64,000 nucleotides of DNA from contig NC_061063.1 in assembly GCF_021917145.1 (NCBI RefSeq), positions 11,258,516-11,322,515 on the forward strand, in the 5' to 3' direction. The position numbers and the translations under genes are program-made. The stretch is from Hypomesus transpacificus. Its lineage: Eukaryota > Chordata > Actinopteri > Osmeriformes > Osmeridae. A model generated the notes under the pieces. The model was not told the origin of the DNA. It did not search any database and worked only from the letters and a program-made list of their open reading frames with translations. Positions 11,130 to 38,700 of the stretch are shown in pieces (position 1 is the stretch's first letter; each line of letters opens with the position of its first letter).

Positions 11130-11315
11130 AGCTTTGGGCGGGGGTGAGGGTGAGAGCGAGGGTGGGGGTGAGGATGGGAGGGAGAGTGGGAGTGGGGCTT
11201 GAGGGTGGGTGTGGGGATGGGGATGAGGGTGGGAGAGAGGGTGGGTGTATGGTTGAGGGTGAGAGTGGGTGAGAGGGTGGGAGTCTGTTGGGTGAGGGTG
11301 GGAGTGAGGGTGGGG
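11130..11315 (+). repeat. G-rich minisatellite (GGGTGAGGGTGGGA-like)
   Basis: Tandem variants of gggtgagggtgggagtg run across about 180 bp, with a strong G/C strand bias. The runs of three or more G could form G-quadruplexes on the plus strand. The block sits at the edge of the duplicated flank described at 11320. Confidence 0.85.
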
Positions 11316-11319
11316 ACCA

Positions 11320-13690: not shown

Positions 13691-13709
13691 ATTGTACTTT
13701 ACTCATAAC

Positions 13710-14671: not shown

Positions 14672-14883
14672 TACTGTACACATATAAATAGACAGTATAC
14701 ATTGGGCAGAATAAGAAGTTTGTAGCTTGTAGCATGTAGTTTGATGCTCAGGGTAGAGACTTGAGGGTTCAGCCGTTGTATCAGTCTTCCCCTACACCCT
14801 GGTCCCTCGCAGGGCTTAAACACCAGCAAGCTCTGGCTGATGAACTCAGGTGCTGGTGCATCTTCTGAGACATGTATCCCTGT

Positions 14884-17800
14884 TCAAGTATCCCTGGCTT
14901 CCTGCTGGGACCTGGCGGGGTGCGGTCGGTACATGTGGTCGGGGCAGGAGCATCGGGGAAGGCCGATGGTGAAAGGAAGACCCGTGGGTTTGTCCTCCGG
15001 TAAATCGCACTCAGAGACGGACACAGTGTCCTGGCCCCGGAAGGCGTATTTGTGCACATCCTGGATGAAGGCGTCCTTGGTGTTGTGCTCCTTCCGGAAC
15101 AGGATGATGTAGCACTTGGGCAGGAAGTGACAGCAGATGATTCCGTAGGAGGAGATGAGGATGACCACCATCTCCACTGCCGGCAGGTACTTCCCAGATG
15201 TGGTGATGTACACAGGGACGAAGATCGCCCAGGAGATGAGGTAGAGGAGCATGCCAAAAGTGATGAACTTGGCCTCGTTGTACTTCTGGGGCAGCTTGCG
15301 GCCCTTGAAGGCGCAGAAGAAGCAGACCAGCGCCAGGACGGCGATGTAGGACAGCATCACGCCGAACGCCACGTGGGAGCCTTCGTGGCACTCGGCCAGT
15401 ATTGAGGTGGGCTGGACGGTCAGCTTCTCTCGGGGGCTGCTCGGGAGGAGGAGCCAGAGGAGGCAGGTTAGGAGCTGCAGGGTGAGACAGCCACAGACGA
15501 TGACGAGGGGCTGGTACAGGCGGCGGAACACCCGCCCAAGCGCCGGGTTGAACTGGAACGCCAGCAGGATCTTCAGCGACTTGACCAGGATGCAGGAGAC
15601 GCACAGCGTGAAGCTCAGGCCAAACAGCACCTGGCGAACCTTGCAAGTTAGGTTGCTGGGCTTACCCACGAACACCATAGCACTGATGAAACTACCAATC
15701 AGAGACAGCAGGATGACCTGGCACAGCCCCCCTCCCGCCGCCTTCACCACGGGGGTTTGGCACTGGTGCAGGAACAGCGCCCCCACCAGGAGGGACAGGA
15801 GGATGCCCAGGGCGGCCAGCGTTAGTAAGACCACTGCAAAGCCATCGTCCCAGGAGAAATACTCCAGGGTTTTAGGGGTGCATCTGGAGCTGCCCTTCTC
15901 AGACCACTCTCTGTCAGTGTTGCAGGCCGGGCAGTGGTCCATGTCTGCAGGGCCAGAGATGGGGGTTAGACCAGAGAAATAGCCATGGAATAAGATGACA
16001 TGCCGCACCAAATAGTGCGGACTATGAGGAGAAGGAGTTACAGAGTATCTACCCTTAGGTTATGACATGATGTGTGTGTCAGTGTTTGTGTGAGAGTGTG
16101 CGTGTGACGGTGTGAGTGTGTGTGTGTGTCTGTGATTGTGAACGTGTGTGTCGATGAAGAACGCCTGCCTGTGCTGTTGGAGTAGGTGTTCTCAGTACAG
16201 TTGATGCACTTGTAACAGCAGGTGTGCAGCTGTCCTTCAAATGTCTGCTTCCTCTCACCAGGAAGACAGCTCTCTGAGCACCTGGACACTACTTCCTGTG
16301 GACAGCACAGAGCACCACGTCACAAACCAGATTACAGATGAGTAAAATGAAGATGTAACTCACTGGGAAAGAAGAGATGATTTGTGTGTGTGACTGTGTT
16401 TGTATGGAAGTGGCACACACTGTGTGTGCATGTGTGTGTTTGTGTGTGGGGGGAGTGGCATCACCTTCAGGTCAGTGAGGTAAGCAGCGCGGGGAAGGAT
16501 GGTGTGTGTAAAGCTGTCGTTCACAAGGTGGTACTCTGCCACAACGTCGCCCACTTGCACCTTCCCCTCCTTAGAATTCCAGAGAGTGACCACATAGCCC
16601 AGGTTGATTTCTCCACTCTTGTCGAAAAAATAAGTCTCCCCGTCCTGCTCAAATTCCATGCCCTGTTTCAAAGCTCTCCGGACCTAAATGAAATAAGAAT
16701 ACACTTTGTTTTTTGTTTTATTAAGAAAGAGATGTAACACAGCTAAATGTATCAAACAAACCAAAACAAGCAAAGCAATCAGAAAACGAGTTCTAGATCC
16801 ATCTTGCTCCTTCATTTTGCTTTAGCCACCCCTCTGGTCTCAAAGTAAGAGCTGCAAGTCACCTCCCACGGCTCGATGCTTTTCTGGGTGCAGTTCCTGC
16901 TGCTGCAGACTCCGATCATGGCCTGGGCCAGAGCCCTCACAGCCAACTCCACGCTGAACACCGTCTGAGCCTGGCTCTTCTTACCCAGCTCTTCCAGGTC
17001 CAGCTCTCCATTCTCCAGGAACTCATCCAGGAAGGGGTTACGTCTTCTCTCCTCCTCCTTGGTTTCATTCAGTCTCTGCAGATACTTGCGGTAGGACTCC
17101 AGGTTGCTACTTTTAAACATGAAGCCTACCACCTTTCCGATGCTCTCCAGATCCAGGTTTCCCACCACATCTTCGGGAGTTGACGACCAGCCGTCGCTGG
17201 CCAGCCAGACCCTTCCTCCTGAGGCTGACTCCTCCTGCTTATCCTCCAGGGTCTTCAACTTCGGTAAGAGGAACTCCATGTGAGGGGCCATCACAAACGC
17301 CACCACCACCTTGACGCGGGGGTTTGTCAGGATGACGTTGGCGACCCTCGTCACAGCTGAGGAGTAGTTAGGGTCGCTCAGCGAGTTGGGGATGGTCTCC
17401 TTGAAGGCTACGCAAATCCCTCTCTCTGAGGTCTGAGCCAAAAGGGCGTCGAGGGCCGAGCGTCCGTAGTCGTTGTCGGCAATGACCAAGCCCACCCAGC
17501 TCCAGCCACTGTCCACCATCAGCCGGACCATGGCCTTGGTCTGGTACAGGTCACTGGGCACCGTACGCAGGAAGCCTGGGAAACGCTTCTTGTCACTTAG
17601 GATGATGGCGGTGGAGGAGTAGCTGATCTAGAAGGTTGTCAACATGAATTATTGGAAAATTGAGTATTGGAAACATGGATTATTTGAAAATTGAGTATTA
17701 TAAACATTGATTATTGGAAAATGCATTATTGTAAACATGGATTATTGTAATATGGAGTTGTAAACATGGAGTGCTGTTCCAGGGTTGTACACATAGTTAC

Positions 17801-18444
17801 TGTGACACTTAATCTTCTCTAATTCTACACTCTCAAAGCAGGATGGTCGGAAGGTATTTTTACCTGAGGAATGAGCTCCAGGTTCAGTTGCCTGGCAACA
17901 GCGATGGAGATTTCAGAGTAAGAAGCTCCGACAATGGAGGTGATGGGCGGGAGTGAGCCGCCGGCCGCTTCCCCTTGTTTGCGGAGCCCAGCGATGGCCC
18001 TCAGGGCCGTGGTGACGTCAGAGCAGGAGTCTTGGATGCGATAGCCCAGCTTCAGGCCAAGCCGGGACATGGAGGGAGACTGGTTGACTAACTCCACTGT
18101 GTTGATCATAGCCAGGCCACTGTTTAATGCATGATTATTAAACCTGTCAATGGGAAAAGGGAATTCAGCACTCGTGAATGGTCGCAGATTGTTATGTATT
18201 GAGCATACCCACTCACGTGGATACGTTTAAATGTTACACGTTTCTGTTTGTCGGGCACTCACCTCACACACTTAGCCACATGCGGAGGGACGATTGTGGT
18301 GTTTTCCTCCACATCATCGTGGAAAGGGAAAATACCCCCTATGATGATGTCACCAGCGGCAGTAGTCCCCTCATGCGTGCCACCTGTCAACCTTGGCAAC
18401 AAAATTACAGACAGGAACAGTAACGGACTGATGCAAGTCACCAT
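14884..18444 (-). CDS. gprc6a: GPRC6A-like class C GPCR, copy A, intact (amino-acid/odorant receptor, OlfCa/5.24 group)
   Basis: This is a plasma-membrane receptor of the family that senses basic amino acids and, in fish, serves as an olfactory receptor. Six exons: 18263-18444, 17864-18143, 16863-17627, 16465-16683, 16169-16295 and 14884-15944, totalling 2634 nt or 877 aa, close to family length. Residues 1-20 form a signal peptide (MVTCISPLLFLSVILLPRL). The Venus-flytrap domain (about 25-480) carries GASYSEIS, ISYSSTAIILSD and VWLASDGWSS at positions that hold ligand-contact residues in the family. The cysteine-rich domain (about 483-550) has CSESCLPG and CCYKCINCTEN. Seven helices run from about 559 (WDDGFAVVL) to the class C motif FLPKCYIIL. 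The tail is short. Introns are GT-AG, except the last, which uses a GC donor after ACAG. KPNA5 synteny supports gprc6a. It is probably the only functional copy. Confidence 0.93.
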
Positions 18445-18960
18445 GATCTTCTGTATACTCCTCGGTGTCTCCCAACTGCGGCAGACTTTTATTTTTGCAG
18501 CTTTTTATCCATTCTTTCTGGTTCTTTCTGTTGGAGTCTTTCTCTTTTCTGGCTGCGTCTCTGCGTCTTCTCTCTCTCTGTCTCTCTCTCTCTGTTTCTC
18601 TCTCTCCCTTCCTTTCTCTGTCCCTGATTTCACCTGTGTATCCTTAACTCTCTCTCTGTGTCCTCCACAAGGTGTGGCTGGCAGACTGCTGCCTCCTACT
18701 GCCAGTATCTTCAGTTCAACACACCTGTTATCCCCTCCCACAACACCTCGACAGGATAGCCCCGCCCACCATTCTTGAGGGCCCGATTGAGAAATGGACT
18801 TGTTTCCAGACAATCATAAGATCTGTGTCTGCAGGTTAGGGTTAGGGTGACATCACTGACTGAAACAAGCATTACAGCCCTCTGAGATATCATGTCGCTT
18901 TGCCTGTGGGTGGGATTGGAATGGCTGTGTATAACAGTATTTGTTCAAACACCTGAGGGG
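18445..18960. other. 5' flank of receptor copy A
   Basis: Upstream region of copy A, with a CT-rich stretch (about 18558-18665). It aligns with the 5' flank of copy B at 25325-25860. No clear core promoter element can be named. Confidence 0.5.
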
Positions 18961-19395
18961 CAAGTGTGGGGGTCAAAGAAGCGGTGAGTGTGTGTGTGTG
19001 TGGGGGGGGGGTGATCCTAACAATATGGTGGAATTTACTGAGTCAAGCTGAAAAATTTAGATGTCTGGACAGGGGTCAGGAGCAGGGCCAGAACCAGGAT
19101 TGGGTGGTAGGTGGCCGGGGGTCCCTCAAGGATTCCTGGTTTAATGTTTCCACCCAGTTAAGATTTTATGAACGTCTCGAGAACAAAAACATGTTCATCC
19201 TCCTAAGGTATGAGATGCAACAGGTTCTCATCAGCAGATGGCAACATTGGGTTGATAATGTGTTGGCCTGTCTGGTGGCTGGGAGTTCATAATCTGTTAA
19301 TCAGCAGACTGTCAGTGCTGCTACTGTAGCATTAAAGAGCCCTCCAGGTGAGCAAGAAATCTAAAAATAGAATACTGAGATATGCATGTGAAGTT
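18961..19395 (+). repeat. Array spacer block between receptor units A and B (first half)
   Basis: It contains gaacaaaaacatgttcatcc, gtatgag(a/c)tgcaacagg and agcagactgtcagtgctgct, which recur in the same order at 25860-26404, 33310-33626 and 38129-38700. It continues after the SINE at 21001-21290. The blocks mark unit boundaries of the receptor tandem array. Confidence 0.9.
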
Positions 19396-20999
19396 AGTCA
19401 AGTGGCTGAGCGGTTAGGGAATCGGGCTAGTCAGGGCCGTAACTACCATTGAGGACACCGAGGTCGTGTCCTCAGTATTTTTTTTCGTATTTCTGTTTAT
19501 TTTTTTGCTTAAATCGTGGTATATAAACTCAAAACAAAGTACACGTGAAACTGACTGCAGGACGATGATCTTGGTCTCCCACAAACCGTAACGTGATTTT
19601 ATACTTGAAGAGCCGAGTAGCTCAAGAGTTTGGACATACGTGCTGCACGTCATCAACAAAACGTACTGTCGTTATGGTAACCACCAAACACAAGTCGGAC
19701 GCTGATGTTACCGCCATAGACATACTACCTCTACTGTTAGTGAATAGCCTATGTTAGTTACAGTCACTGGAAGAGGAGCGCAGCAAACTAAACATGTAGC
19801 TAGGTTAAGAGAAGTTTAAGTGGCAGATGACTGTGAGAAGAAAGATTCATTTTCATGTGGAAATATTTGTATTGCAGCAGCGTACTACTCAGATAAGGAA
19901 ACATCAAATCAAAGTTTGGTTAACTCCGTCAGTACCGGTTGTCAATCAATTTCCACCGGTTGAATCAACATTCATTTTGCGATTGATATGTCATTGATGT
20001 GACTGATTGAAAATGAAATTCAGTGGCAATTGGGAAATATCAAACTGACTCGCTATCGCTCGGTCGATACGTTCCAGCCTCAGTTTGATACAGTATTTCC
20101 CGGCATGACCAAACGGTCGAGTTTAGTAAGTAGTTTATTATATGGCAATTTTAGATTCTTTTCATTTTGTAAACGAAAATAAATGGTACCTTTAGGCTAA
20201 TTGTAGCTAGCTCTCAAGTCTTCTCACGGTGTGTTTCATGTGTTGCCAAGCAACTCATTACTTTTGATAGAAAGCGGACAACATGGTTCTGCTAAAATTG
20301 CTTTAATTTCATCACAAAATAACGACACAAGTGATTCAAAGAGTGGTCTTCATCCTCACTTTCGATGACAAAGCTTTTCAGCATCATCTGGATAGTAAAA
20401 CTCAGCAGCTGACTCATCGATATCGCTCATTTTTAAGCTGACGTCAGAGGGCAATACGGATCCGTATTGACCGGCGAGGAGGGCAATACGCGGCTGGGGT
20501 GACTACCCATTATCCAATCAGAACGCTCGTACTGTCGTTGCCATATAATAATAATTTAAAAAAAATTGTGGTAACTTGCCCTTACTTCATGAGTCCCATA
20601 AAGGTCCTTCAAAAAGCCTCAGAATGCCCCATGTTTACCTCAAAATTTCAAAAGCTCCACACCGCCCCATACTCAAAAGTCATAATGATGATGTTTTTGC
20701 TCCTTAAGACTCAATAAGAGAAAATTGCCATATTTAAATAATGTAATTAAAAAAAATTCCGGGGGAGCATGCCCCACGAACCCGCCTAGAAGTTCTGACT
20801 CATGACCTCAGTATTTTTTGGGCCCTGCGTACGGCCCTGGGGCTAGTAATCAGAAGGTTGCCGGTTTGATTTCCGGTCGTGCAAAATTATGGTGTGTCCT
20901 TGGGCAAGGTACTTCACACTACTTGCCTCGGGGGAATGTTCCTTTACTTACTCTAAGTCGCTCTAGATAAGAGCGTCTGCTAAATGACTGAATCTAAAT
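19394..20999 (+). mobile_element. tRNA-derived SINE split by a hAT-like insertion
   Basis: The head GTGGCTGAGCGGTTAGGGAA at 19402 stops at 19431. The B box region and body (aatcagaaggttgccggttt ... gagcgtctgctaaatgac) resume at 20840. The gap is exactly the hAT-like element at 19432-20839. The other spacer blocks lack the SINE at this point (gaagttatgtgttactg at 38403), so it inserted after duplication of the array. Confidence 0.9.
19432..20839. mobile_element. Non-autonomous hAT-like element, 1408 bp, nested in the SINE, perfect TSD
   Basis: The ends are CAGGGCCGTA and TACGGCCCTG, a perfect 10-bp inverted pair, flanked by identical gggctagt at 19424-19431 and 20840-20847. No transposase ORF is seen. 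It holds further inverted repeats: a 14-bp perfect pair at 20135-20148 and 20538-20551, and a hairpin at 20032-20101. Confidence 0.92.
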
Positions 21000-21000
21000 G

Positions 21001-21290
21001 TGTTATTGTTTAATTTCATGTTGTAGTGTACCTCTCTATGAAACACAAAATCACATGAATTACACACACTGGGCTGTGACTTTGGCTACATTCAGAATCT
21101 CTGTAGGATGAAGGCTGTGAGTCATTATTAATCATGCATTTAGAAAATACAATGTAATTCATAGTTTTACATGAACACGCATTGCTCATTTGCATAGCTA
21201 CCCAAATACAAAGACACACATACACACGCTCTCTTTCTCTCTCTCATGAATACAAATTCCTCAGACACACACAGATTGAAGAACAGGTTT
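21001..21290 (+). repeat. Array spacer block between units A and B (second half)
   Basis: Matches 26247-26402 and 38403-38670 (tgttactgtttaatttcatg, gaatctctgtaggatgaagg). It is continuous with 18961-19395 once the SINE and hAT-like insertions are removed. The 3' flank of copy B follows. Confidence 0.88.
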
Positions 21291-21773
21291 AACCTTGTAG
21301 GCGTCCTCCAAACGACCATTGCTGTTAGGTGTCACTCTGTATGCTATCACTATATTGACAGTCATCTGGGACGCTATTCCTAAAATCATCGATCAAGTCC
21401 TCTCCAAACAACTCTTTTTATTGTACTTCACTTAGGGTTAACATCAGTGCGACGGCAACATAGTATTGTATTACTGTATTATCTCCCACCCCAACTCCCC
21501 TGAGGAGAAGAATTTACATTGTTTTACATAGTCAAATATACTTTTTAAAATGTACTGTACGTATATAAAAACGTACACATAGAAATCGACGGTATACATT
21601 GGGCACAAGACGAAGCTTGTAGCACGTAGTTTGATGCTCAGGGTAGAGACTTGAGGGTTCAGCCGTTGTATCAGTCTTCCCCTACACCCTGGTCCCTCGC
21701 AGGGCTTAAACACCAGCAAGCTCTGGCTGATGAACTCAGGTGCTGGTGCATCTTCTGAGACATGTATCCCTGT

Positions 21774-24700
21774 TCAAGTATCCCTGGCTTCCTGCTGGGA
21801 CCTGGCGGGGTGCGGTCGGTACATGTGGTCGGGGCAGGAGCATCGGGGAAGGCCGATGGTGAAAGGAAGACCCGTGGGTTTGTCCTCCGGTAAATCGCAC
21901 TCAGAGATGGACACAGTGTCCTGGCCCCGGAAGGCGTATTTGTGCACATCCTGGATGAAGGCGTCCTTGGTGTTGTGCTCCTTCCGGAACAGGATGATGT
22001 AGCACTTGGGCAGGAAGTGACAGCAGATGATTCCGTAGGAGGAGATGAGATTACCACCATCTCCACTGCCGGCAGGTACTTCCCAGATGTGGTGATGTAC
22101 ACAGGGACGAAGATCGCCCAGGAGATGAGGTAGAGGAGCATGCCAAAAGTGATGAACTTGGCCTCGTTGTACTTCTGGGGCAGCTTGCGGCCCTTGAAGG
22201 CGCAGAAGAAGCAGACCAGCGCCAGGACGGCGATGTAGGACAGCATCACGCCGAACGCCACGTGGGAGCCTTCGTGGCACTCGGCCAGTATTGAGGTGGG
22301 CTGGACGGTCAGCTTCTCTCGGGGGCTGCTCGGGAGGAGGAGCCAGAGGAGGCAGGTTAGGAGCTGCAGGGTGAGACAGCCACAGACGATGACGAGGGGC
22401 TGGTACAGGCGGCGGAACACCCGCCCAAGCGCCGGGTTGACCTGGAACGCCAGCAGGATCTTCAGCGACTTGACCAGGATGCAGGAGACGCACAGCGTGA
22501 AGCTCAGGCCAAACAGCACCTGGCGAACCTTGCAGGTCAGGTTGCTGGGCTTGCCCACGAACACCATGGCACTGATGAAACTACCAATTAGAGACAGCAG
22601 GATGACCTGGCACAGCCCCCCTCCCGCAGCCTTCACCACGGGGGTTTGGCGCTGGTACAAGAAGAGCGCCCCCACCAGGAGGGATAGGAGGATGCCCAGG
22701 GCGGCCAGCATTAGCAAGACCACCGCAAAGCCATCGTCCCAGGAGAAGTACTCCAGGGTTTTAGGGGTGCACCTGGAGCTGCCCTTCTCAGACCACTCTC
22801 TGTCAGTGTTGCAGGCCGGGCAGTGGTCCATGTCTGCAGGGCCAGAGATGGGGGTTAGACCAGAGAAACAGCCGTGGAATAAGATGACATGCCACACCAA
22901 ATAGTGCGGACTATGAGGAGAAGGAGTTACTGAGTATCTACCCTTAGGTCATGACATGATGTGTGTGTCAGTGTTTGTTTGAGAGTGTGCATGTGACGGT
23001 GTGAGTGTGAGTGTGTGTGTGTCTGTGATTGTGAACGTGTGTGTCGATGAAGAACGCCTGCCTGTGCTGTTGGAGTAGGTGTTCTCAGTACAGTTGATGC
23101 ACTTGTAACAGCAGGTGTGCAGCTGTCCTTCAAATGTCTGCTTCCTCTCACCAGGAAGACAGCTCTCTGAGCACCTGGACACTACTTCCTGTGGACAGCA
23201 CAGAGCACCACGTCACAAACCAGATTAAAGATTAGTAAAATGAAGATGTAACTCACTGGGAAAGAAGAGATGAATTGTGTGTGACTGTGTTTGTATGGAG
23301 ATGGCACACACTGTGTGTGCATGTGTGTGTTTGTGTGTGGGGGGGAGTGGCATCACCTTCAGGTCTGTGAGGTAAGCAGCACGGGGCAGGATGGTGTGTG
23401 TGAAGCTGTCGTTCAAAGGGTGGTACTCTGCCACAATGTCGCCCACTTGCACCTTCCCCTTCCTAGAATTCCAGACAGTGACTTCATAGCCAAGGGTAAT
23501 GTCTCCATTCTCGTCGAAAAAATAAGTCTCCCTGTCCTGCTCAAATTCCATGCCCTGCTTTAAAGCTCTCAAAACCTAAATGAAATAAGAATACATGTTG
23601 GGTTTTTGAAAATATGTGAAAGATATATAACTGACAACACAGCTAAATGGATCAAACAAACAAACCAAAACAAGCAAAGCAATCGGAAAACAAGTTATAG
23701 ATCCATCTTCCTACTTCACTTTGCTCAGCCACCCCTCTGGTCCCAAAATAAGAGCTGCAAGTCACCTCCCACGGCTCGATGCTTTTCTGGGTGCAGTTCC
23801 TGCTGCTGCAGACTCCGATCACGGCCTGGGCCAGAGCCCTCACAGCCAACTCCACGCTGAACACCGTCTCATCCTGGCTATTCTTACCCAGCTCTTCCAG
23901 GTCCAGCTATCCATTCTTCAGGAACTCATCCAGGAAGGGGTTACGTCCTCTCTGCTCCTCCCTGGTCTCCTTCAGTCTCTGCAGGTACTGGCGGTAGGAC
24001 TCCAGGTTGCTACTTTTAAACGTGAAGCCTACCACCTTTCCGATGCTCTCCAGATCCAGGTTTCCCACCACATCTTCGGGAGTTGACGACCAGCCGTCGC
24101 TGGCCAGCCACACCCTTCCTCCTGAGGCTGACTCCTCCTGCTCATCCTCCAGGGCCTTCAACTTCAGTAAGAGTTGTGACATCTGATGGGACGTCAAAAA
24201 CGCCACCAACACCTTGACGCGGGGGTTTGTCAAGATGACGTTGGCGACCCTCGTCACGACTGAGGAGTAGTCAGGGTCGCTCAGCGAGTTAAGGATGGTC
24301 TCTTTGAAGGCCACGCAAATCCCTCTCTTCGAGGTCTGACCCAAAAGGGCGTTGAAGGCCGAGCGTCCGTATTCGTTGTCGGCAATGACCAAGCCCACCC
24401 AGCTCCAGCCACTGTCCACCATCAGCCGGACCATGGCCTTAGTTTGGTAGAGGTCACTGGGCACCGTACGCAGGAAGCCTGGGAAACGCTTCTTGTCGCT
24501 TAAGATGATGGCGGTGGAGGAGTGGCTGATCTATAAGGTTGTCAACATAGATTATTGGAAAATTTCGTATTGGAAATATGGATTATTGCAATATGGAGTA
24601 TTGGAAACATGGATTATTGTAATATGGAGTTGTAAACATGGAGTGCTGTTCCAGGGTTGTACGCATAGTTACTGTAACACTTAATTGAACTAATCTTCAC

Positions 24701-25324
24701 TAATCCTAAACTCTTTCAAAGCAGGATGGCCGGAAGGTATTTTTACCTGAGGAATACGCTCCAGGTTCAGTTGCCTGGCAACAGCGATGGAGATTTCAGA
24801 GGAAGAAGCTCCGACAATGGAGGTGATGGGCGGGAGTGAGATGCCAGCCACTTCCCCTTGTTTGCGCAGCCCAGCGATGGCCCTCAGGGCCGTGGTGACG
24901 TCAGAGCAGGAGTCTTGGATGCGATAGCCCAGCTTCAGGCCAAGCCGGGACATGGAGGGAGACTGGTTGACTAACTCCACTGTGTTGATCATAGCCAGCC
25001 CACTGTTTAATGCATGATTATTAAACCTGTCAGTGGGAAAAGGGAATTCAACACTCGTGAATGGTCGCAGATCGTTATGTATTGAGCACAACCACTCACG
25101 TGGATACGTTTAAACATTACTTACACGTGTTTGTCGGGCACTCACCTCACACACTTAGCCTCATGCGGAGGGATGATTGTGATGCTTTCCTCCACATAAT
25201 CGTGGAAAGGGAAAATACCCCCTACGATGATGTCACCAGGGGCAGTAGCTTCAGGTCTGCCACCTGTCATCCATGGCAACAAAAAAACAGATAGGAACAG
25301 TAACGGACTGATGCAAGTCACCAT
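21774..25324 (-). pseudogene. GPRC6A-like receptor copy B, full exon set but nonsense codon and frameshift
   Basis: The exon layout is the same as copy A: 25146-25324, 24747-25026, 23766-24530, 23357-23575, 23062-23188 and 21774-22833. The N-terminus is MVTCISPLLFLSVFLLPWMT. In exon 3, TAG (plus strand CTA at 23907-23909, about codon 361) replaces the GAG of copies A and C within ENGELDLEELG. In exon 6 a 1-bp deletion at about 22049-22052 shifts the frame after YLPAVEMVVI, at the start of helix 7, so the read-through product would have a foreign tail ending at 21671. The Venus-flytrap motifs also differ from copy A (GASSSEI, ISHSST). All splice sites, including the GC donor of the last intron, are kept. 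Two independent lesions make a sequencing error an unlikely explanation for both. I call it a recent pseudogene. Confidence 0.9.
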
Positions 25325-25859
25325 GATCTTCTGTATACTCCTCGGTGTCTCCCAACTGCGGCAAACTTTTATTTTTGCTGCTCTTTATCCATTCTTTCTA
25401 ATTCTTTCTGTTGGAGTCTTTCTCTTTTCTGGCTGCTTCTCTGCGACTTCTCTCTCTCTCTGTCTCTGTCGCTCTCTTTCTCTGTTCCTGATTTCACCTG
25501 TGTCTCGTTGGCCCTCTCTCTGTGTCCTCCCGAGGGTGTGGCCAGCAGACTGCTGCGCTGCCTCCTGCTGCCAGTTGATGGACCGATTGAGAAACTGACT
25601 CACTTCCGTCAGGCAGAAGACAATTGACGATCATATGATCTGTGTCAGCAGGTGAGAGGGCAGGATCGGCAACGTCACTGACTGAAACAAGCATCACAGC
25701 CCTCTGAGATATCCTGTCTCTTTGTTTATGGGTGGGATTGGGATGGCTGTGTTCAACAGTATACCTTCTCCTGTCTCACTGCCTGTGCTTTGGGGTTAGG
25801 GTTAGAGGCAGGGTGTGGGTGGGATTGGAACGGCTGTGTATTACAGTATGGGTGGCAAG

Positions 25860-26404
25860 TGTGGGGGTCGAGGAGGAGGGGGGGGATCCTTACAATATTG
25901 TGGAATTTACTGAGCAGAAAAATTTAGATGTCTGGACAGGGGTTAGAACCAGGGCTGGGGGGGAGGGGGCGGGGGTCCTTCAATTCCTGGTTTGAGGTCT
26001 CCACCTAGTGGAGATTTTATGAAAGCTTCGAGAACAAAAACATGTTCATCCTCCTGAGGTATGAGCTGCAACAGGATTTCATCAGCAGATGGCGCAATTT
26101 GGTGAATAATGTGTTGGCTTGTCCGTTGGCAGGGAGTTCATAATCTTTTAATCAGCAGACTGTCAGTGCTGCTACTGTAGCATGAAAGAGCCCTCCAGAT
26201 GAGCAGGAAATCTAAAAATAGAAGACTGAGATATTGCATGTGAAGGTATGTGTTACTGTTTAATTTCATGTTGTAGATTCAACCTCTTTATGAAACACAA
26301 AGACACATGAATCACACACACTGGGCTGTGTTTCGGGCTACATTCAGAATCTCTGTAGGATGAAGGCTAAGACTCATTGGTAATCACGCATTTCTAAAAT
26401 CCCT
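25860..26404 (+). repeat. Array spacer block upstream of copy B
   Basis: Matches the spacers at 18961, 33310 and 38129, without the SINE insertion. Homology breaks off at about 26402 (catttctaaaatcc), where unrelated transposon-rich sequence begins. Confidence 0.88.
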
Positions 26405-28624: not shown

Positions 28625-30300
28625 GAAGGGACTAGGTGGAGCAAGTTGGAGATGACAGAATTCCCAGGCAGGTGTCAGGGTGGTGATGCAGTGCTCTCAG
28701 AGTTTCTGTTGAACCATTTCTGAGTTATGGTGCCCTTGGAGGGTTTGTTGTCACATGACTCTGGAGTGTAATGCTGGGGACACACTAAACAATTTTTTTA
28801 ACCTTATAAGATTTTCAAACTGTGAGAGACCACAAACATGAGGACAAAAATCCTAGATTTAGCCGTTTAGCTCCTACAGTGTGTGGTGTGCCATGATTTG
28901 ACAAAGACAGCACACCACACACAATCAGATTTCCAACCAGTGTCCCGACTGTTAACACAAGAAATCTCGCAAAATCTGTCGAGATTTAAGAATAAGCATG
29001 GCGGACTATATGCAGGAAGAAATTGCGATAATAGTGTTTGGAATTCTTTTCACAGAAAATTTACAGAAAAAAGAAAAGGGTTTGCTGTTGCACAAATCAA
29101 TTCCATTTAACTTTGTGTTGCGCCGTGACTCTGTTTTTTATGCTTCTGTCTTCTCTCAGCTTGCTTTCTGATTGGATATTGTTTCGTTTCACGTGATAAA
29201 CTGAACAGACCCAGACTGGACTGAACCAGACAAGCTGGTTCAGTCCTCTGAACTTGATGACAGGGAAGTGTGCCCAAGGATTTTCACAACAGCGGACCAC
29301 AGTCTGAATCATACTGCATGTAAATCGAACAACTGATTCTAAATAATCTAGCAATGGATGCTTTGTTTTATTAATCAATGAAGGTCTGTATGTCATACGT
29401 CAACCAGTAAGCATTCCATATGTAATTTAATGGCTTTGTCTCACCCTAGCAGGAGAAGGAGGGTAAGGGTGCTGAGGGCCATTTCCCAGCCCCACATCAC
29501 AGAAATACTGCTACTGATAAACACTTCTCCCTGTTGGAACCCCCTACCACCAGAAAAAAAAAAAATAACAACCAGACGGATTTTTTTACAGATCAGTCAG
29601 AACCCTTTGGGGGTTGTCTATTTTCGGTTGAAAACAGAACCAAAAATGTCAGTACATGCACACTAAACCCTCCCCATCTCTAGTCTTCGCCTCAGTCTTC
29701 GCCGGCTTCAAAGGCACACCAGAGGGAAAGTTATTTCCTGTTTGACTGTGATCACTGATCATCTGTTTGGTTCTATTGTTGGCCGTCTGACAAAAAAATT
29801 GATTGGTAAGAGGTCACTGAAGAAGAGCTGCAGTCTCTACCTCAAATGTCTCATAATTGGATTTATTGCAGACAAACAGGTATGAGTCCTGGGAATTCCT
29901 GGAACTTTTGACACACACCCACACACACATACCTACACACATGTTCAAATCACAGTTCGCTTAGTCAGGTTAGGCAAGGGCACAACTCTAAAAGTGACAG
30001 GTACATGTTGAAAGCCGACAACATAAGTTTCCTGAAACATTTCAATAATGGAACTTTGCCTATTTGGAATGCCTCACACAGTGAAACCTTTTGAGTGAAA
30101 TAGAAAAGACCAACCCCCCTATACATTACTCTCGTTAGAGAGGCCTGCAACACAATGGTGAAGTATCGCTGGATGGTATCATTCTGTTTTGTATCACTCT
30201 GTATGGTATCACTCAATAGACAGTCAGTTGGGAAGCTATTCCTAAAATCACAGATCAAGTCCTCTCCAGAATAAACAACTCTCTTTATTGTACTTTATAA
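28625..30300 (+). repeat. Duplicated 3' flank of receptor copy C (partner at 11320-13690)
   Basis: Collinear matches to copy A's flank are broken by two events. Different sequence fills 28770-29214 here and 11453-11565 there (it starts atgctggggacacactaaac here, possibly another transposon). The block 29450-30125 is inverted relative to copy A. The end, cctctccagaataaacaact (about 30262), is shared by units A, B, C and D. Confidence 0.8.
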
Positions 30301-30668
30301 CACCAGTGTGGCAGCAACATAAGATGTTTAAGATGACATAGGATATTCAAGAAATTCGAGCATAAAAAATCATTTGTTTTCAATATGAATAAAAAATATT
30401 ACTGTATTAGCTCCCACAGAAAATACCGACCCCTCTGAGGAGAGGAATCTGCATTGTTGTACATGATCAAATATAATTTTGTTTATTTACCGTAAATATC
30501 AAAACATTTACACATAAATAGACGGTATACATTGGGCAGAAGACTAAGCTTGTAGCTGGTAGCATGTAGTTTGATGCTCAGGTTACAGACTTGAGGTTCA
30601 GCAGTTGTATCAGTCTTCCCTCTGGTCCCCCGCAGGGCTTAAACACCAGCAAGCTCTTGCTGATGAAC

Positions 30669-33309
30669 TCAGGTGCTGGTGCATCTCCTGAGACGTGCAT
30701 GCCTGTTCAAGTATCCCTTGCTCCCTGCTGGGACCTGGTGTGGTGCCGCCAGTATGTGTGGTTGGGGCAGGGACATCGAGGGCACGCTGATGGTGAAAGG
30801 AGGACCTGTGCGTTTGTCCTCTGGTAAATCGCACTCACAGGCGGACACAGTGTTCTGGTCCCGGAAGGCGTAGTTGTGCACGTCCTGGATGAAAGCGTCC
30901 TTGGTGTTGTGCTCCTTCCGGAACAGGATGATGTAGCACTTGGGCAGGAAGTGACAGCCAAGGATTCCGTAGGAGGAGATGAGGATGACCCCCATCTCCA
31001 CCGCCGGCAGGTACTTCCCAGATGTGGTGATGTACACAGGGACGAAGATCGCCCAGGAGATGAGGTACAAGAGCATGCCCAAGGTGATGAACTTGGCCTC
31101 GTTGTACTTCTGGGGCAGCTTGCGGCCCTTGAAGGCGCAGAAGAAGCAGACCAGCGCCAGGACGGCGATGTAAGACAGCATCACGCCGAACGCCACATAG
31201 GAGCCTTCGTCGCACTCGGCCAGCATCGAGGTGGGATGGAAGGACAGCTTCTCTCGGGGGCTGCTCGAGAGGAGGAGCCAGAGGAGGCAGGTGAGGAGCT
31301 GCAGGGTGAGGCAACCACAGACAATGATGTGGGGCTGGTAGAGGCGGCGAAACACCCGCCCCAGCGCCGGGTTGAACTGGAACGCCAGCAGGATCTTCAG
31401 CGACTTGACCAGGATGCAGGAGACGCACAGCGTGAAGCTCAGGCCGAACAGCACCTGGCGAACCTTGCAGGTCAGGTCGCTGGGCTTGCCCACGAACACC
31501 ATGGTGCTGATGAAACTACCAATCAGAGACAGCAGGATGACCTGGCACAGCCCCCCGCCTGCCGCCTTCACCACGGGGGTTTGGCGCTGGTGCAGGAACA
31601 GCGCCCCCACCAGGAGGGACAGGAGGATGCCCAGGGCGGCCAGCGTTAGTAAGACCACCGCAAAGCCATCGTCCCAGGAGAAATACTCCAGGGTTTTAGG
31701 GGTGCACCTGGAGCTGCCCTTCTCAGACCACTCTCTGTCTGTGTCACAGGAAAGGCAGTGGTCCATGTCTGCAGGGCCAGAGAAGGAGGTTTGACCAGAG
31801 AAATAGCCGTGAAATAGGATTACATGCCACACCAAATAATGTGGACTGTGAGGAGGTACTGAGCATCTATCCTTAAATCATAACATCATGTGAGTGTGAC
31901 AGTGTGAGTGTGAATGTGTGTGTCGATGAAGAACTCTTGCCTGTGCTGTTGGAGTAGTGGTTCTCCGTACAGTTGATGCACTTGTGACAGCAGGTGTGTT
32001 GCTGTCCTTCAAACGTCTGCTTCCTCTGACCAGGAAGACAGCTCTCTGAGCACCTGGACACTACTTCCTGTGGGCAGCACAGAGCACCACATCACAAACC
32101 TGATTAAAGATGACTAAAATGAAGATGTAACTCACTGGGAAAGAATAATTGATTTGTGTGACTGTATTGGTATGGAGGTGGCTCGCAATGTGTGTGTGTG
32201 TGCGTGTGTGTAGGGGGAGTGGCCTCACCTTCAGGTCTGTGAGGTAAGCAGCGAGGGGCAGGATGGTGTGTGTGAAGCTGTCGTTCACAGGGTGGTACTC
32301 TGCCACAATGTCGCCCACTTGCACCTTCCCCTCCTTAGAATTCCAGAGAGTGACTTCATAGCCCAGGTTGATTTCTCCATTCTCCTCAAAACAATAAGTT
32401 TCCCCATCCTGCTCAAATTCAAAGCCCTGCTTTAAAGCTCTCAGGACCTAAATGAAATAAAAATACACGTTGGGTTTTGAAAAGATGTAAGAGATATGCA
32501 ACTGACAACACAGCTAAACTGATCAAACCAAAACAAGCAAAGCAATCGGAAAACAAGTTATAGATCCATCTTCCTCCTTCACTTTGCTCAGCCACCCCTC
32601 TGGTCCCAAAATAAGAGCTGCAAGTCACCTCCCACGGCTCAATGCTTTTCTGGGTGCAGTTCCTGCTGCTGCAGACTCCGATCACGGCCTGGGCCAGAGC
32701 CCTCACAGCCAACTCCACGCTGAACACCGTCTCATCCTGGCTCTTCTTACCCAGCTCTTCCAGGTCCAGCTCTCCATTCTCCAGGATCTCATCCAGGAAG
32801 GGGTTATGTCTTCTCTCCTCCTCCTTGGTCTCATTCAGTCTCTGCAGATACTTGCGGTAGGACTCCAGGTTGCTACTTTTAAATGTGAAGCCTACTACCT
32901 GCCCGATGCTCTTCAGATCCAGGTTTCTTGCCACTTCGGGAGTTGACGACCAGCCGTCGCTGGCCAGCCACACCCTTCCTCCTGAGGCTGACTCCTTCTG
33001 CTTATCCTCCAGGGCCTTCAACTTCGGTAAGAGGAACTCCATGTGAGTGGACGTCACAAACGCCACCACCACCTTGACGCGGGGGTTTGTCAGGATGACG
33101 TTGGCGACCCTCGTCACAGCTGAGGAGTAGTCAGGGTCGCTCAGCAAGTTGGGGATGGTCACCTTGAAGGCCACGCAAATCCCTCTCTCTGAGGTCTGAG
33201 CCAAAAGGGCGTCGAGAGCCGAGTGTCCGTAGTCGTTGTCGGTGATGACCACACCCACCCAGCTCCAGCCACTGTCCACCATCAGCCGGACCATGGCCTT
33301 GGTCTGGTA
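30669..33309 (-). pseudogene. GPRC6A-like receptor copy C, 5'-truncated
   Basis: The retained exons are 32629-33309 (exon 3, truncated), 32229-32447, 31941-32067 and 30669-31768. Exons 1 and 2 and the first 28 codons of exon 3 are gone, so about 182 residues are missing: signal peptide, lobe 1 and part of the ligand hinge. Homology stops inside the Tyr codon of DLYQTKAM and passes directly into array spacer at 33310. The rest is open with no stop: lobe 2 (MVRLMVDSGWSWVGVVITD), the cysteine-rich domain and all seven helices to FLPKCYIIL. A 1-nt insertion near PSMSLPQ shifts the tail frame and lengthens it by 13 codons relative to copy A. The last intron uses GC donor GCAAGA. Without a signal peptide it is unlikely to make a normal receptor, but the ORF is well preserved, so truncation is recent or the remnant is constrained. 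Confidence 0.88.
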
Positions 33310-33626
33310 AAGGGGCGGGGGTCCATCAAGTATTCCTGGTTTGACGTCTCCACCCAGTGGAGATTTTCGAAAGTCTCATGAACAAAAACATGTTCATCCT
33401 GCTGAGGTATGAGCTGCAACAGGATTTCATCAGCAGATAGCAACATTGGGTTGATAATGTGTTGGCTTGTCCGTTGGCCAGGAGTTCATGATCTGTTACA
33501 TGTAATCAGCAGAAAGTCAGTGCTGCTACTGTAGCATGAAAGAGCCCTCCAGGTGAGCAGGAAATCTAGAAATAAGACTGAGATACTGCATGTAAAGTTG
33601 TGTTACTGTTTAATTTCATGTTGTAG
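33310..33626 (+). repeat. Array spacer block upstream of copy C
   Basis: A shortened spacer (gggggtccatcaagtattcctgg ... tttaatttcatgttgtag) joins exon 3 of copy C directly to the 3' flank of relic D. It lacks the second half seen at 38435-38700. Confidence 0.88.
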
Positions 33627-34042
33627 TCCTCTCCAGAATAAACAACTCTCTTTATTGTACTTATAACATCAGTGTGGCAGCAACATAGGATGTTCAAGAT
33701 GACATAGGATATTCAAGATATTCAAGCATATAAAATCATTTGTGAATATTATTTTTTTTACTGTATTAGCTCCCACAGCAAATGTCAACCCCCCTGAAGA
33801 GAGGAATTGTTGTACATAATCAAATATACTTTTGTTTATTTACTGTAAATATCTAAAAATGTACACATATAAATAGACGGTATACATTGGGCAGAAGACA
33901 AAGCTTGTAGCTGGTAGCACTTAGCTTAATGTTCAGGTTAGAAACTTGCGGTTCAGCATTGGATACAATGGATTATTGTAATTTGGAGTTGTAAACATGG
34001 AGTGCTGTTCCAGGGTTGTACTCATAGTTACTGTGACACTTA
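33627..34042 (-). pseudogene. Relic of a fourth GPRC6A-like unit (copy D)
   Basis: 33627-33957 matches the receptor 3' flank (cctctccagaataaacaact, gcagcaacataggatgttc, tatacattgggcagaaga). At ggttcagcattgg it jumps to intron 2 sequence (gttgtaaacatggagtgctg at about 33988), which ends at 34042 where a mariner-like element begins. Exons 3-6 are deleted and exons 1-2 were not found. Its spacer reappears at 38129, after about 4 kb of later insertions. Confidence 0.85.
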
Positions 34043-34679
34043 GAGTTTTTTACAATCGTTACGACAGTTTTTTCAAAACCTTAAACAAGTTTTCTAAACT
34101 CTTAACGCACCAACACACCTATCACACACAATTGACAAAACAGTTAATTTCATGCTCAAAATCACACATTGTAAACTAAATTCAAACACTAATTGTCATA
34201 ACACAAAAATACACTAAACATTACACCATGTCTAACAAACACTAACACACGTTCTCTTTTCACAGGAACTTTTAGTCAATCATGGCACAATGTCATAAAA
34301 AAAACACTAACATCAGATGGAATTACAGAAACTGCATTCATTTATGCAGGTATGTGTCAGGTCTCACAGTATATGGATTATAGATTATGTTTGCAAAGCA
34401 GTTTCTTTTGAAGCCTCTCTACATTATGTTTTGATGTAAATGTATGCATTTTGTATCTTTTGCAGCAGAAATTCAGAACAAAAAATGAATCACCCATCTC
34501 AGAGTAGCTTTATAGAATGTGCGGTTACTGTATTGAAAAAAAGAAGACAGAAACATAATTGCTGCAGTAAAGGCTTCATTTGCAACAGGACTTTACTACA
34601 AGAAATATGCAATATAGCTTCCATTTACAGTATTACCCTAGCTCTGGCCCTTCTCTGAGCGCCACCACACATTCTAACT

Positions 34680-34880
34680 CCTCTCCCTTTCCCCACTCCT
34701 CTCCCTTGTCCTGGTACTTGTCTTCCTCTCCCTTGTCCTGGTACTTGTCTTCCTCTCCCTCTTCCTTGCCCTTGTCCCACTCCTCACCCTTGTCCTGGTA
34801 CTTGTCTTCCTCTCCCTCTCCCTTGCCCTTGTCCCACTCCTCTCCCTTGTCCTGGTACTTGTCTTCCTCTCCCTCGTGCA
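34680..34880 (+). repeat. CT-rich minisatellite inside the mariner-like element
   Basis: Repeats of ctcccttgtcctggtacttg followed by tcttcctctccc, about four to five full copies with nested shorter copies. The minus strand reads as DKYQDKGEEWDKGKGEGEE-type repeats, which I consider non-coding. Confidence 0.85.
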
Positions 34881-35204
34881 GGCACAACTGTATACTTACT
34901 TTCTTCGTGTTGCTATATATTGTTCTTTTTCCAAACAAGATCAGCCCAAAGAGGTCCTCTTTATATGTACTGTAATAAATGTAGGTTTGTTCGTGGAGCA
35001 AGAAATTACTGCCAAATATGTCAGACTGAAAGAACACAGGTACAAGCTTGTAACAATATAACAAGGTTTTTATTAAGTCAGGACAAGGGTTCTCTAAAAC
35101 TCATAAGCTGGGGTGGAATACTCCAGGGCACAACGCAGGCTACACAGGCATTCAAGGAAGCTGGGCTCTCTGTGGACCACACTCCACCCTCCCCAATCAT
35201 GTGA

Positions 35205-35325
35205 AAGCACACCACTCTCAAAGCTGGGCCAAACCCCCAGTAAACACCCCAACGTCACTGCACTCTCGAAGCTGGGCCAAACCCCCAGTAGACACCCCAA
35301 CGTCACTGCATCCTGGCACTCACTC
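35205..35325 (+). repeat. About 50-bp tandem repeat
   Basis: Two complete copies, with a third partial one before them, of agctgggccaaacccccagt plus acaccccaacgtcactgca, with few differences. Confidence 0.85.
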
Positions 35326-35499
35326 AAGTTCAAGTTCGAACGCATACCTTCACTATGTCACTCGTGTATAGGGGAGCCCCAACTACCCACTCTGGACGGT
35401 GCACTGCTCCTCGCACCGTGTCATAGCGATTGTAGAAAACTGTAATGTAAACCTAAAGTGTGTCTTTGTCTGTATATGTATCATATATAACTTTTAAAT

Positions 35500-36440
35500 G
35501 AAAAATAGAGCTCTTACATGTCCATGGAGACTTTACCTCAGCCTTCATTACAGTTATCCCACACAAACTCTCAGTAAAGCTCCTCACTCTGGGTCTGACA
35601 CCGGCCCTCTGCAACTGGGTGCTGAACTTCCTATCAGGCAGACCCCAATCAGTCAGAGTTGGCAACCGCAGTTCCAATACAAGGCCTGTGAGCACAGGGA
35701 CCCCCCAGGGCTGTGTACTGAGTCCCCTGCTGTACACCCTCTTCACACCCGACTGTGTGGCCTCCCAGGGAAACAAGTTTGCAGATGATACTACGGTCAT
35801 TGGAATGATCACTGGTGGGGCTGAGACAGCGTACAGAGGAGAGATAGAGGAACTTGTGGCCTGGTGTCAAAATAATACACTCTCCCTGAACACAGACAAG
35901 ACCAAGGATATGGTTATCGACCCAAGGAGGAAGAAGTTGCAGCACATACCACTGTACATGGGTGAGGCCGAGGTGGAAAGAGTGACCTTTCAATTCCTTG
36001 GAACACACATTAGCGAGGATCTCACCTGGTCTCACAACATACTCCAGATCATGAAAAAGGCTCAGTAGAGGCTGTACTTCCTGAGTACAGCCTCAGGAAG
36101 CCGAGGAAATTTGGCATGCCAACCAAAATTCTCAGGAACTTTTACAGAGGCACGGTCGAGAGCATCCTTACCACATCTGTCATAGTGTGAAATGGACACT
36201 GTACTGCCCAGGACAGGAATGCACTCCAGCGTGTGATCGAAACAGCACAGTTCATCTCAGGAGCAGCATTCCCCTCAGGACATTTACCCCACCAGGGTCA
36301 CCAGGAGAGCACAGAATATCATTAAGGACAGAACACACGCCCAGCACTGACTCTTCTCGCTGCTGCCATCAGGCAGACGTTACAGGAATCTGAAATCCAG
36401 AACAAAGAGACTAACAAGCTCTTACCACAAACTTTGCTCT
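35500..36440 (+). mobile_element. LINE fragment, reverse transcriptase and 3' part (Rex1/CR1-like)
   Basis: The plus-strand frame 35619-36068 encodes the middle of a non-LTR reverse transcriptase: [18 protein letters not shown], then FADDTTVIG (the catalytic YxDD-type motif with F-A-D-D), then [15 protein letters not shown] stop at 36066-36068 and frame changes break the C-terminal part, whose remains (tgccatcaggcagacgttac) continue to about 36440. It is 5'-truncated and inactive. The family name is from general resemblance. Confidence 0.82.
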
Positions 36441-36533
36441 AGGCATTGGAGGCCGGTTATAACTGATAGACGAGTAATACGTAAGGAACTCATGGGCTAT
36501 ATCCAATAACCAACTAAGGACATTAGAACACTG

Positions 36534-36867
36534 GGTAACACTTTAGATGAGCTCACCAAATTCATAATTTATCAACCAATTTGTTACCTATTAGTTAACA
36601 GTTTGTTCACCATTAGTTATTAATTGTTTATATAAAATGTATCATTAGTAAAGCATTTGTTCACACAGTTAGGGTTTGGATTTAGGGTTAGGGTTTAAGT
36701 TTTGGTTAACGTTTAGGGTTAAGGTTTAGGGTTATGCTTTACTAATACTTTACTAATGATACATTTTGTATGAACAATAAATAACTAATGCTGTACAAAC
36801 CGTTAACTAATAGGTAACAAATTGGTTAATAAATTATGAATTTGGTGAGCTCGTCTAAAGTGTTACC
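36534..36867. mobile_element. Palindromic short element (MITE-like), 334 bp, perfect 8-bp TSD
   Basis: It has long inverted arms beginning GGTAACACTTTAGA and ending TCTAAAGTGTTACC, each continuing through caccaaattcataatttat. Identical gaacactg flanks lie at 36526-36533 and 36868-36875. The centre carries ttagggtt-type telomere-like runs (about 36670-36735). Confidence 0.92.
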
Positions 36868-37794
36868 GAACACTGCAACCCCTGAGTTACGTTGGCAGAA
36901 ATATTAATCTATCAAGCATTGCACAGTCAGTCGGTGAACAAGTTTAAGAAAGCTTTATTGCTTGCGGCCGGCCCACAAGGAGACAAAAACATCACACGCC
37001 ATTGTGCTACAAAGTTTGTCTGCTAGCATGTTGTGCTAGCTAGCCATTTACAGTAAGCAGTCCCACTCTTTACAGTCATTGGTTAAGACAAAGGCATGCA
37101 AATGTTCCATGGCTCTTCTTCATTGGTTCCTTGCGTATACGTGGTGCGTGTGTGTGCGTGCGTGTTTGAGTGTGTGCCTGTGTGTGCCTTTTGACCCCTG
37201 TAAGCTTGACCACATGATTCACCCAACACAGATAAGGCCAGACATCTTTTATGGCCTTTCCAGTAAGAGAGAGTGGTCAGCCCTTGTGTACATATGCCGC
37301 ATGTTACCCAAAGTTCAGATTTGGGGGTAGGCCTCTCTCTACACACAAGGAATGCTGAACACAGAATCATTCTTATACAGGATAAATGTGTTACATCTTC
37401 AATTTTTCCAACATACGTAAATGTCAGACCGGCGCCCTTAGCATTTACATATTGACAAGAAGCAGAGAGGGAAATTGACAGGTTATCAACTGGTTACCTT
37501 GCAACACATTTATGTTTAGAAAGGGGCGGACGTTTTATGAGTATAAAGCAAGCTGTGCTCATGCAACTGTTGGACTTTTCATGCTCGAAATACCCAATGT
37601 GTGTATATCCTGTATTGAAGTAAATAAAGCTACTTTATGCTAATTATGATAACTAAACATTAACCAACACTAACCAACTCTGACCCAAGTTGAACACTGG
37701 ATTTTGATGTTTCAACCCCCATTGACCCTGCTGTATGACTATGTTTAGCCTGTGTTCTGCACCTATCTTTCACTAACTGTCTCTGGAGGAGGGG
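36868..37794. other. No gene seen
   Basis: Unique-looking sequence with a short GT-rich stretch (about 37140-37190). No exon or repeat could be assigned. Confidence 0.4.
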
Positions 37795-38127
37795 ATCCAG
37801 CGTGCGAATTACGGGGGAATTTGGGGGGGTCTGACCCCCCTAATTAAGACTTGGACCCCCAAAAGAGGTAAAAACAACAGGTCAGGGGGGTCGATACATG
37901 CCCTGGAGAAGAAGTTGACCCCCCCGATTGTCATTGGATAATTCGATCCCTCACTGAATTGCTCCTCCCAAGGTTTCTTCAAAAGAAAATTCCACTAGTG
38001 AGTTTTTCTGGGATTTTTTCCTTGTCTTCCTTGAGGGTTTAGGTTGGTTGAGGGGCAGTTCTATGGGCGAATGTGAAGCCCTTTGTGACATTGCTTGTAA
38101 AAAGGGATATACAAATAGATGTTGTAT
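37795..38127 (+). mobile_element. Transposon debris, including an L2-like LINE tail
   Basis: 37795-37935 shows gggggtc and gacccccc inverted runs. From about 37965 the motifs aaggtttcttc, tgtgacattgcttgtaaaa and gggatatacaaataga resemble the 3' end common in teleost L2-type LINEs. Confidence 0.5.
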
Positions 38128-38128
38128 T

Positions 38129-38700
38129 GGGGTCCCTCGAACATTCAAACCAGATTCCTGGTTTGAGATTTTTCAACAGTCTCGGGAACAAAAAGCCCAA
38201 AAAGTTTATCGTCCTGAGGTATGAGCTGCAACAGGATTTCATCAGCAGATGGCGACATTGGGTTGATAATGTGTTGGCCTGTCTGCTGGCAGGGAGTTCA
38301 TAATCTGTTAATCAGCAGACTGTCAGTGCTGCTACTGTAGCATGAAAGAGCCCTCCAGATGAGCAGGAAATCTAAAAATAGAAGACTGAGATACTGCATG
38401 TGAAGTTATGTGTTACTGTTTAATTTCATGTTGTGGAGTCTACCACTTTATGAAACACAAAGACACATGAATGACACACACTGGGCTGTGACTTTGGCTA
38501 CATTCAGAATCTCTGTAGGATGAAGGCTGTGAGTCATTACTAATCATGCATTTCGAAAATCCAATGTAATGCATAGTTTTACAAGAACACGCATTGCTCA
38601 TTTGCATACCTACCCAAATACACACACACATATACACACTCTTTCTCTCATGACTACAAATACCCCCCCCACACACGGTTGAAGTGAAGGACAGGTTTAA
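38129..38700 (+). repeat. Array spacer block of relic unit D, most complete copy
   Basis: Runs through both halves of the spacer without the SINE seen at 19394, so it gives the pre-insertion sequence. It marks the distal end of the receptor array. Confidence 0.88.

What the first reader, a model, noticed from the sequence alone, without database searches (positions are those of the whole stretch)
14884..38700. A four-unit GPRC6A-type receptor array caught at successive stages of decay
One intact gene (A), one full-length copy with two lesions (B), one 5'-truncated copy (C) and one scrap (D) lie in the same orientation, separated by homologous spacers. GPRC6A is usually described as single-copy in vertebrates, so a local expansion followed by loss is notable and relevant to fish amino-acid olfaction. 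The exon structure and lesions are read directly; the family and synteny come from knowledge.
Basis: partly seen in the sequence, partly recalled or inferred. Interest (0 to 1): 0.8.

Follow-up and report, generated by a model that had tools for sequence, protein, structure and literature searches.

The report
Decayed tandem GPRC6A array in smelt
A smelt-like fish carries four tandem units of an amino-acid-sensing receptor gene that is usually single: one readable gene and three broken copies, which appear to have been copying stretches of sequence into one another as they decayed.

Summary
Four head-to-tail GPRC6A units lie on the minus strand. A (exons 18444-14884) has an 877-aa open frame. 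B is full length with an exon-3 stop and a 1-base deletion in exon 6. C lost exons 1-2 and part of exon 3. D keeps no detected coding sequence, only 3' flank, an intron-2 piece and spacer around a 4.1-kb insert. Genome searches found high-identity copies only here.

Corrections. (1) A is not pristine: it shares with B a frameshift replacing the C-terminal tail; C and Osmerus eperlanus keep the original frame. (2) Copies are mosaics: A and B differ at 5 of 899 sites over the 3' part but at 153 of 1945 from exon 1 to exon 4, and shorter tracts link A-C and B-C. Damage therefore does not order the copies by age. (3) GPRC6A is not strictly single elsewhere: Diretmus and Paramisgurnus show 4 and 3 proteins with equal contig lengths.

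Most likely a birth-and-death chemoreceptor array with gene conversion; no paper on it was found in seven library searches.

The parts
14884..18444 (-). Copy A, GPRC6A gene: exons 18444-18263, 18143-17864, 17627-16863, 16683-16465, 16295-16169 (GC donor), 15944-14884; 877 aa
   Evidence: Pfam ANF_receptor and 7tm_3; 91% to Osmerus eperlanus GPRC6A-like
14884..14960 (-). Frameshifted C-terminal tail of A (shared with B at about 21850)
   Evidence: 1-base alignment gap against C at A 14960 / B 21850; P0001 and C end in RRCTST, A does not
21774..25324 (-). Copy B, full-length pseudogene: exons 25324-25146, 25026-24747, 24530-23766, 23575-23357, 23188-23062, 22833-21774
23907..23909 (-). In-frame stop in exon 3 of B (codon 362 in A numbering)
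   Evidence: also 1 TAG inside the match
22049..22050 (-). 1-base deletion in exon 6 of B (frameshift near the end of the membrane domain)
   Evidence: the match breaks in two at query residue 301
30669..33313 (-). Copy C, 5'-truncated: exon 3 from 33313 to 32629, exons 32447-32229, 32067-31941, 31768-30669; keeps the original tail frame
33305..33626 (.). Upstream spacer of C joined directly to broken exon 3: deletion breakpoint at 33305-33313
   Evidence: matches 19105-19395 and 25966-26276
33625..34042 (.). Remnant D: gene 3' flank (33625-33964) joined to an intron-2 piece (33955-34042); exons 3-6 absent
   Evidence: found elsewhere only in this array
34043..38162 (.). Sequence inside D without match in the other units (insert), with a reverse-transcriptase fragment at 35502-36068 and a hairpin repeat at 36534-36867
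38163..38731 (.). Upstream spacer of D, right edge of the array
   Evidence: matches 26011-26402, 20998-21322, 19158-19396, 33360-33624; found elsewhere only within the window
18775..21322 (.). Upstream spacer of A (18775-19396 and 20998-21322, split by a 1.6-kb insert); 21317-21322 is the A-B unit junction
25575..26402 (.). Upstream spacer of B
28623..30610 (.). 3' flank of C, partly homologous to the flank of A at 11308-13701, with inverted segments
14761..15660 (-). A side of the near-identical A-B tract (partner in B at about 21650-22550)
   Evidence: 5 differences in 899 sites
16750..17453 (-). A coordinates of two shorter tracts: A-C 17453-17263 and B-C 16969-16750
   Evidence: 0 of 5000 shuffles reach either segment score

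Best explanation
This is the only GPRC6A locus found in the genome of a smelt-like teleost, expanded by tandem duplication of a unit made of the gene, up to about 0.9 kb of upstream spacer and some 3' flank. A is probably the one working receptor, an amino-acid-sensing class C GPCR (function inferred from family and retained ligand residues). B, C and D are broken by separate events: B by a stop and a frameshift, C and D by deletions whose joins fall where the two sides share a few bases, D also by a transposon-bearing insert. Unequal exchange and gene conversion between units (inferred from mosaic identity) have overwritten segments, including a recent A-B tract that carries a shared tail frameshift. 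The array is in birth-and-death turnover and does not display an ordered age series.
For: Gene models and lesions. Unit architecture and deletion joins. Spacer and flank pieces found genome-wide only in the window. Three high-identity exon-6 copies (B in two pieces) and three exon-3 copies in the genome; next-best matches 49% or less and 51% or less. Eight of eight ligand-signature positions kept in A and B against goldfish P0098 (positions from PMC1764893 passages, shifted by two for goldfish from recall). B has more derived residues than A in exons 1-4 when polarised by P0001: 34 against 13. Mosaicism: longest A-B run, 0 of 10000 shuffles, A-C 7 of 10000; best A-B, A-C and B-C segments, 0 of 5000 each. 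Segment trees differ: exons 3-4 leave A, B, C and P0001 unresolved, exons 5-6 join A and B at 99/97.
Against: A's tail is frameshifted, so even A may be impaired. The nonsynonymous share does not differ significantly between A and B (Fisher p 0.23 over shared codons, B's stop counted), and at strongly conserved positions B has only one private departure, so constraint on A and its absence on B are not shown. The B-C longest-run test is weak (671 of 10000). Site shuffles assume an even rate along the gene. The whole-length tree puts the Osmerus protein with A and B to the exclusion of C (90/85, below the tool's star), so the duplication may predate the species split. Without reads, the near-identical A-B tract could be an assembly chimera. 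No expression data.
Confidence: 0.84

Rival explanations
1. Assembly artefact: allelic haplotypes of one gene laid out in tandem, or paralogues stitched wrongly.
For: P0121 and P0122, two exon-6 proteins from short public contigs of evidently the same or a very near fish, are mosaics of A-, B- and C-type residues, so either some assembly mixes copies or the copies really recombine.
Against: A and B differ by 8-13% in introns 1-3 and 5' flank, far above ordinary allelic difference (general knowledge); copies have distinct deletions and inserts; the window lies more than 11 Mb into a contig with no N run in the array.
Confidence: 0.08
2. No conversion: A and B are simply the youngest duplicates, and exon 6 is conserved by purifying selection.
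For: Exon 6 is the conserved 7TM part, and A-B dN/dS is low there (0.09 for codons 483-830). A-B dS in exons 1-2 (0.073) is not far above that in exons 5-6 (0.058).
Against: Introns 4 and 5 are 97% identical between A and B whereas introns 1-3 are 87-92%, and C differs from both by 12-16% in introns 4 and 5. A-B dS is 0.058 in exons 5-6 against 0.108 in codons 1-482, while A-C dS is 0.140 against 0.108 in codons 181-482.
Confidence: 0.06
3. All copies are dead, and A is a pseudogene that has only lost its tail so far.
For: Tail frameshift in A; 78 of 120 listed homologues end in R-x(2,3)-S-[ILMTV] while A does not; no other GPRC6A was found in the genome.
Against: 877-aa frame, splice sites and eight ligand residues kept; at the 214 positions compared that are at least 95% conserved A shows only the seven departures that the Osmerus eperlanus protein also shows; 42 of 120 homologues also lack the tail motif.
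Confidence: 0.15

Closest known systems
GPRC6A / goldfish receptor 5.24 / zebrafish OlfCa1 (class C GPCR)
   Same: Domain order, six exons (recalled for the family), eight ligand-signature residues, best match named GPRC6A-like
   Different: Tandem array with pseudogenes; A lacks the usual C-terminal tail; zebrafish, goldfish, fugu and mouse were reported with one gene (passages)
GPRC6A proteins of Diretmus argenteus (P0027, P0042, P0051, P0076) and Paramisgurnus dabryanus (P0095, P0097, P0110)
   Same: Several GPRC6A proteins per species, with equal contig lengths and so probably on one contig, each set its own clade
   Different: There each listed copy is predicted as a whole protein; here only one of four units is open. 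The expansions are independent.
Teleost OlfC/V2R tandem clusters with pseudogenes
   Same: Same-orientation tandem copies, mixture of genes and pseudogenes (PMC1601972 passages)
   Different: OlfC clusters have up to tens of members; this is a small array of a related gene outside that family

Membership tests
GPRC6A | Class C 7TM domain plus Venus-flytrap ligand domain | tested here: met
   Pfam 7tm_3 1.9e-74 and ANF_receptor 8.9e-36 in A
GPRC6A | Groups with named GPRC6A proteins | tested here: met
   Among the 120 listed of 253 matches, every name that states a receptor is GPRC6A; others are hypothetical, unnamed or without name. Clade with Osmerus GPRC6A-like 100/100. No CaSR, T1R or V2R rows were put in the tree.
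GPRC6A | Amino-acid signature residues (8 positions) | tested here: met
   A and B keep 8 of 8; C keeps 4, the other four being lost or at the breakpoint
GPRC6A | C-terminal tail motif | tested here: not met
   A and B frameshifted; C and P0001 keep the frame. The motif is absent in 42 of 120 rows too, so it does not define the family.
GPRC6A | Neighbour genes ZUP1-KPNA5 on one side, RFX6 on the other (human order, recalled) | tested here: inconclusive
   Armadillo exons at 4.2-6.9 kb and a weak zinc-finger match at 505-1215 fit KPNA and ZUP1; no RFX6 match in the window, nearest RFX domain on this contig about 10.4 Mb away
GPRC6A | Response to amino acids | not testable with these tools
   needs a cell assay
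Interlocus gene conversion array | Mosaic tracts with different closest partners, introns included | tested here: met
   the B-C longest-run test alone is weak
Interlocus gene conversion array | Tracts confirmed on single molecules | not testable with these tools
   no reads available

The most novel reading that the evidence does not exclude
The array is actively recombining in the population: dead units act as donors that rewrite the live receptor's membrane and tail segments, so individuals carry different A/B/C mosaics, and the tail frameshift in A was itself copied between units. P0121 and P0122 would then be real alternative haplotypes rather than assembly chimeras.
Probability: 0.25. 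Interest if true: 0.55.

Novelty: new member of a known kind. Interest (0 to 1): 0.38.

Why it matters
GPRC6A has been treated as a single, broadly expressed amino-acid receptor in fishes. A tandem array with pseudogenes and conversion, next to independent expansions in Diretmus and a loach, suggests that the gene does take part in the birth-and-death turnover seen in other fish chemoreceptors. It also cautions against reading pseudogene damage as a clock when copies exchange sequence.

Tried and rejected
D as a coding scrap: rejected, no coding match. D as a dispersed repeat: not supported, its flank, intron piece and spacer were found genome-wide only in the window; the tool warns that very common words are skipped, so rarity is not proved, and one weak inverted match (38908-39009, 74%) lies just right of the array. 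The GC donor of exon 5 as a lesion of A: rejected, shared by A, B and C. RFX6 as right-hand neighbour: not found. Monophyly of A, B and C against Osmerus: neither shown nor rejected (p-AU 0.095 for exons 3-4; 71/63 support for exons 5-6); the whole-length tree leans against it (90/85 for P0001 with A and B). A search with A's exon 3 for smelt fragments gave 20 matches, the best 46% identical, one 60% over 40% of the query. Excess nonsynonymous change in B against synonymous change: not significant. Species name: not determined; Osmerus eperlanus is the nearest named relative only, and its cluster P0001 stands for 7 sequences that I could not see apart. Structure prediction, promoter scans and RNA-family searches were not run.

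Full report
What is there. The window comes from a teleost close to smelts. It lies on contig C4 of a 437-Mb, 376-contig assembly, and the closest protein to copy A is Osmerus eperlanus GPRC6A-like, 91% identical over 99% of the query. Four units lie head to tail with genes on the minus strand. Copy A has six exons with standard splice sites except a GC donor after exon 5, and 877 residues without an internal stop. Pfam finds the ligand-binding and 7TM domains.

Copies B and C. B has all six exons and the same splice dinucleotides as A. It carries a stop at codon 362 and a 1-base deletion in exon 6. C begins inside exon 3: at 33313 the exon runs into sequence that in A and B lies upstream of exon 1. 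One deletion of about 1.5 kb by comparison with A and B explains it.

Copy D. No coding match was found at 34-39 kb. But 33625-33964 matches the 3' flank of the genes, 33955-34042 matches intron 2 at 93-94%, and 38163-38731 matches the upstream spacers at 86-89%. In the genome search the spacer has 5 matches besides itself and the flank piece 7, all within the window; the spacer's weakest, 74% and inverted, lies just right of the array. The tool skips very common words, so this does not prove rarity. D therefore looks like a true fourth unit that lost its exons; 4.1 kb without match in the other units, with a reverse-transcriptase fragment, separates its parts.

A is not pristine. A and B share a 1-base frameshift near the end of exon 6. 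C and the Osmerus protein keep a tail ending RRCTST. Of the 120 listed homologues 78 end in R-x(2,3)-S-[ILMTV] and 42 do not. A therefore has an altered tail, though its ligand and membrane parts look sound: eight of eight ligand positions are kept, and at the 214 compared positions that are at least 95% conserved it shows only the seven departures that the Osmerus protein shows. B has one private departure there and C three, so this measure hardly separates A from B.

Mosaic copies. A and B differ at 5 of 899 sites over A 14761-15660 but at 153 of 1945 from exon 1 through exon 4 with introns 1-3. Introns 4 and 5 are 97% identical while introns 1-3 are 87-92%; C differs from both by 12-16% in introns 4 and 5. 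Two shorter tracts link A with C and B with C. For the best segment of each pair 0 of 5000 site shuffles reach the score; by longest run the figures are A-B 0, A-C 7 and B-C 671 of 10000. The tail frameshift lies inside the A-B tract. B's exon-6 deletion lies in the same tract but only in B, so it is probably younger than the last exchange there (inference). Trees of the two halves differ: exons 3-4 unresolved, exons 5-6 with A and B at 99/97.

Other sequences of the same kind. P0121 and P0122, from short contigs of an archive (source 'ena', no name), carry at every position compared in the first 330 residues of exon 6 a residue found in A, B or C. P0121 is B-like early, A/B-like in the middle (with one A/C-type residue where B differs) and C-like from residue 823 on, with one tail residue found in no window copy. 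P0122 is A/B-type at the start, C-type at 613-692 and A-type after 700. They are either assembly chimeras or real recombinants; I cannot tell.

Selection. Polarised by the Osmerus protein, B has 34 derived residues against 13 in A in exons 1-4 (binomial p 0.003), and in the part shared by all three 23 against 9, with 12 in C. The comparison with synonymous change is not significant (Fisher p 0.23). Faster protein change in B is suggested; constraint on A is not proved.

Copy number elsewhere. Genome-wide, exon 6 has three copies at 89-100% (B's in two pieces) and the next match is 49% or less; exon 3 has three at 87-100% and the next is 51% or less. Two 2006 papers report one GPRC6A in the fishes they examined (passages). 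Seven library searches listed no paper on a GPRC6A array in smelts; passages were read in five papers. The library lacks most subscription journals.

Timing. The whole-length tree places the Osmerus protein with A and B, C outside, at 90/85, below the tool's star; the segment trees do not settle it. The duplication may be older or younger than the split from Osmerus, and conversion blurs the signal.

Verdict. Most likely a real tandem chemoreceptor array in turnover.

Noticed in passing
505-6919: A weak zinc-finger match (minus) and Armadillo exons (plus) fit ZUP1 and KPNA, neighbours of GPRC6A in human (order recalled).
   Followed up: partly
3542-4188 and 5821-6558: Two long 24-base minisatellites lie before and between importin-alpha-like exons.
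   Followed up: no
16167-16168: The exon-5 donor is GC in all three copies that keep it (A, B, C).
   Followed up: yes
17636-17770 and 24544-24642: 31-base minisatellite in intron 2 of A and B, next to the piece that survives in D.
   Followed up: no
20840-21001, 3342-3504, 57137-57320: A dispersed repeat of about 160 bases occurs three times in the window.
   Followed up: no
36534-36867: 127-base inverted repeat with a short loop, a MITE-like hairpin, in the insert of D.
   Followed up: no
48017-48116: 100-N assembly gap outside the array.
   Followed up: no
G000 contig C67: Dense cluster of more distant class C receptor exons on both strands, many with one internal TAA in the match, perhaps an OlfC/V2R cluster with recent copies.
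   Followed up: no
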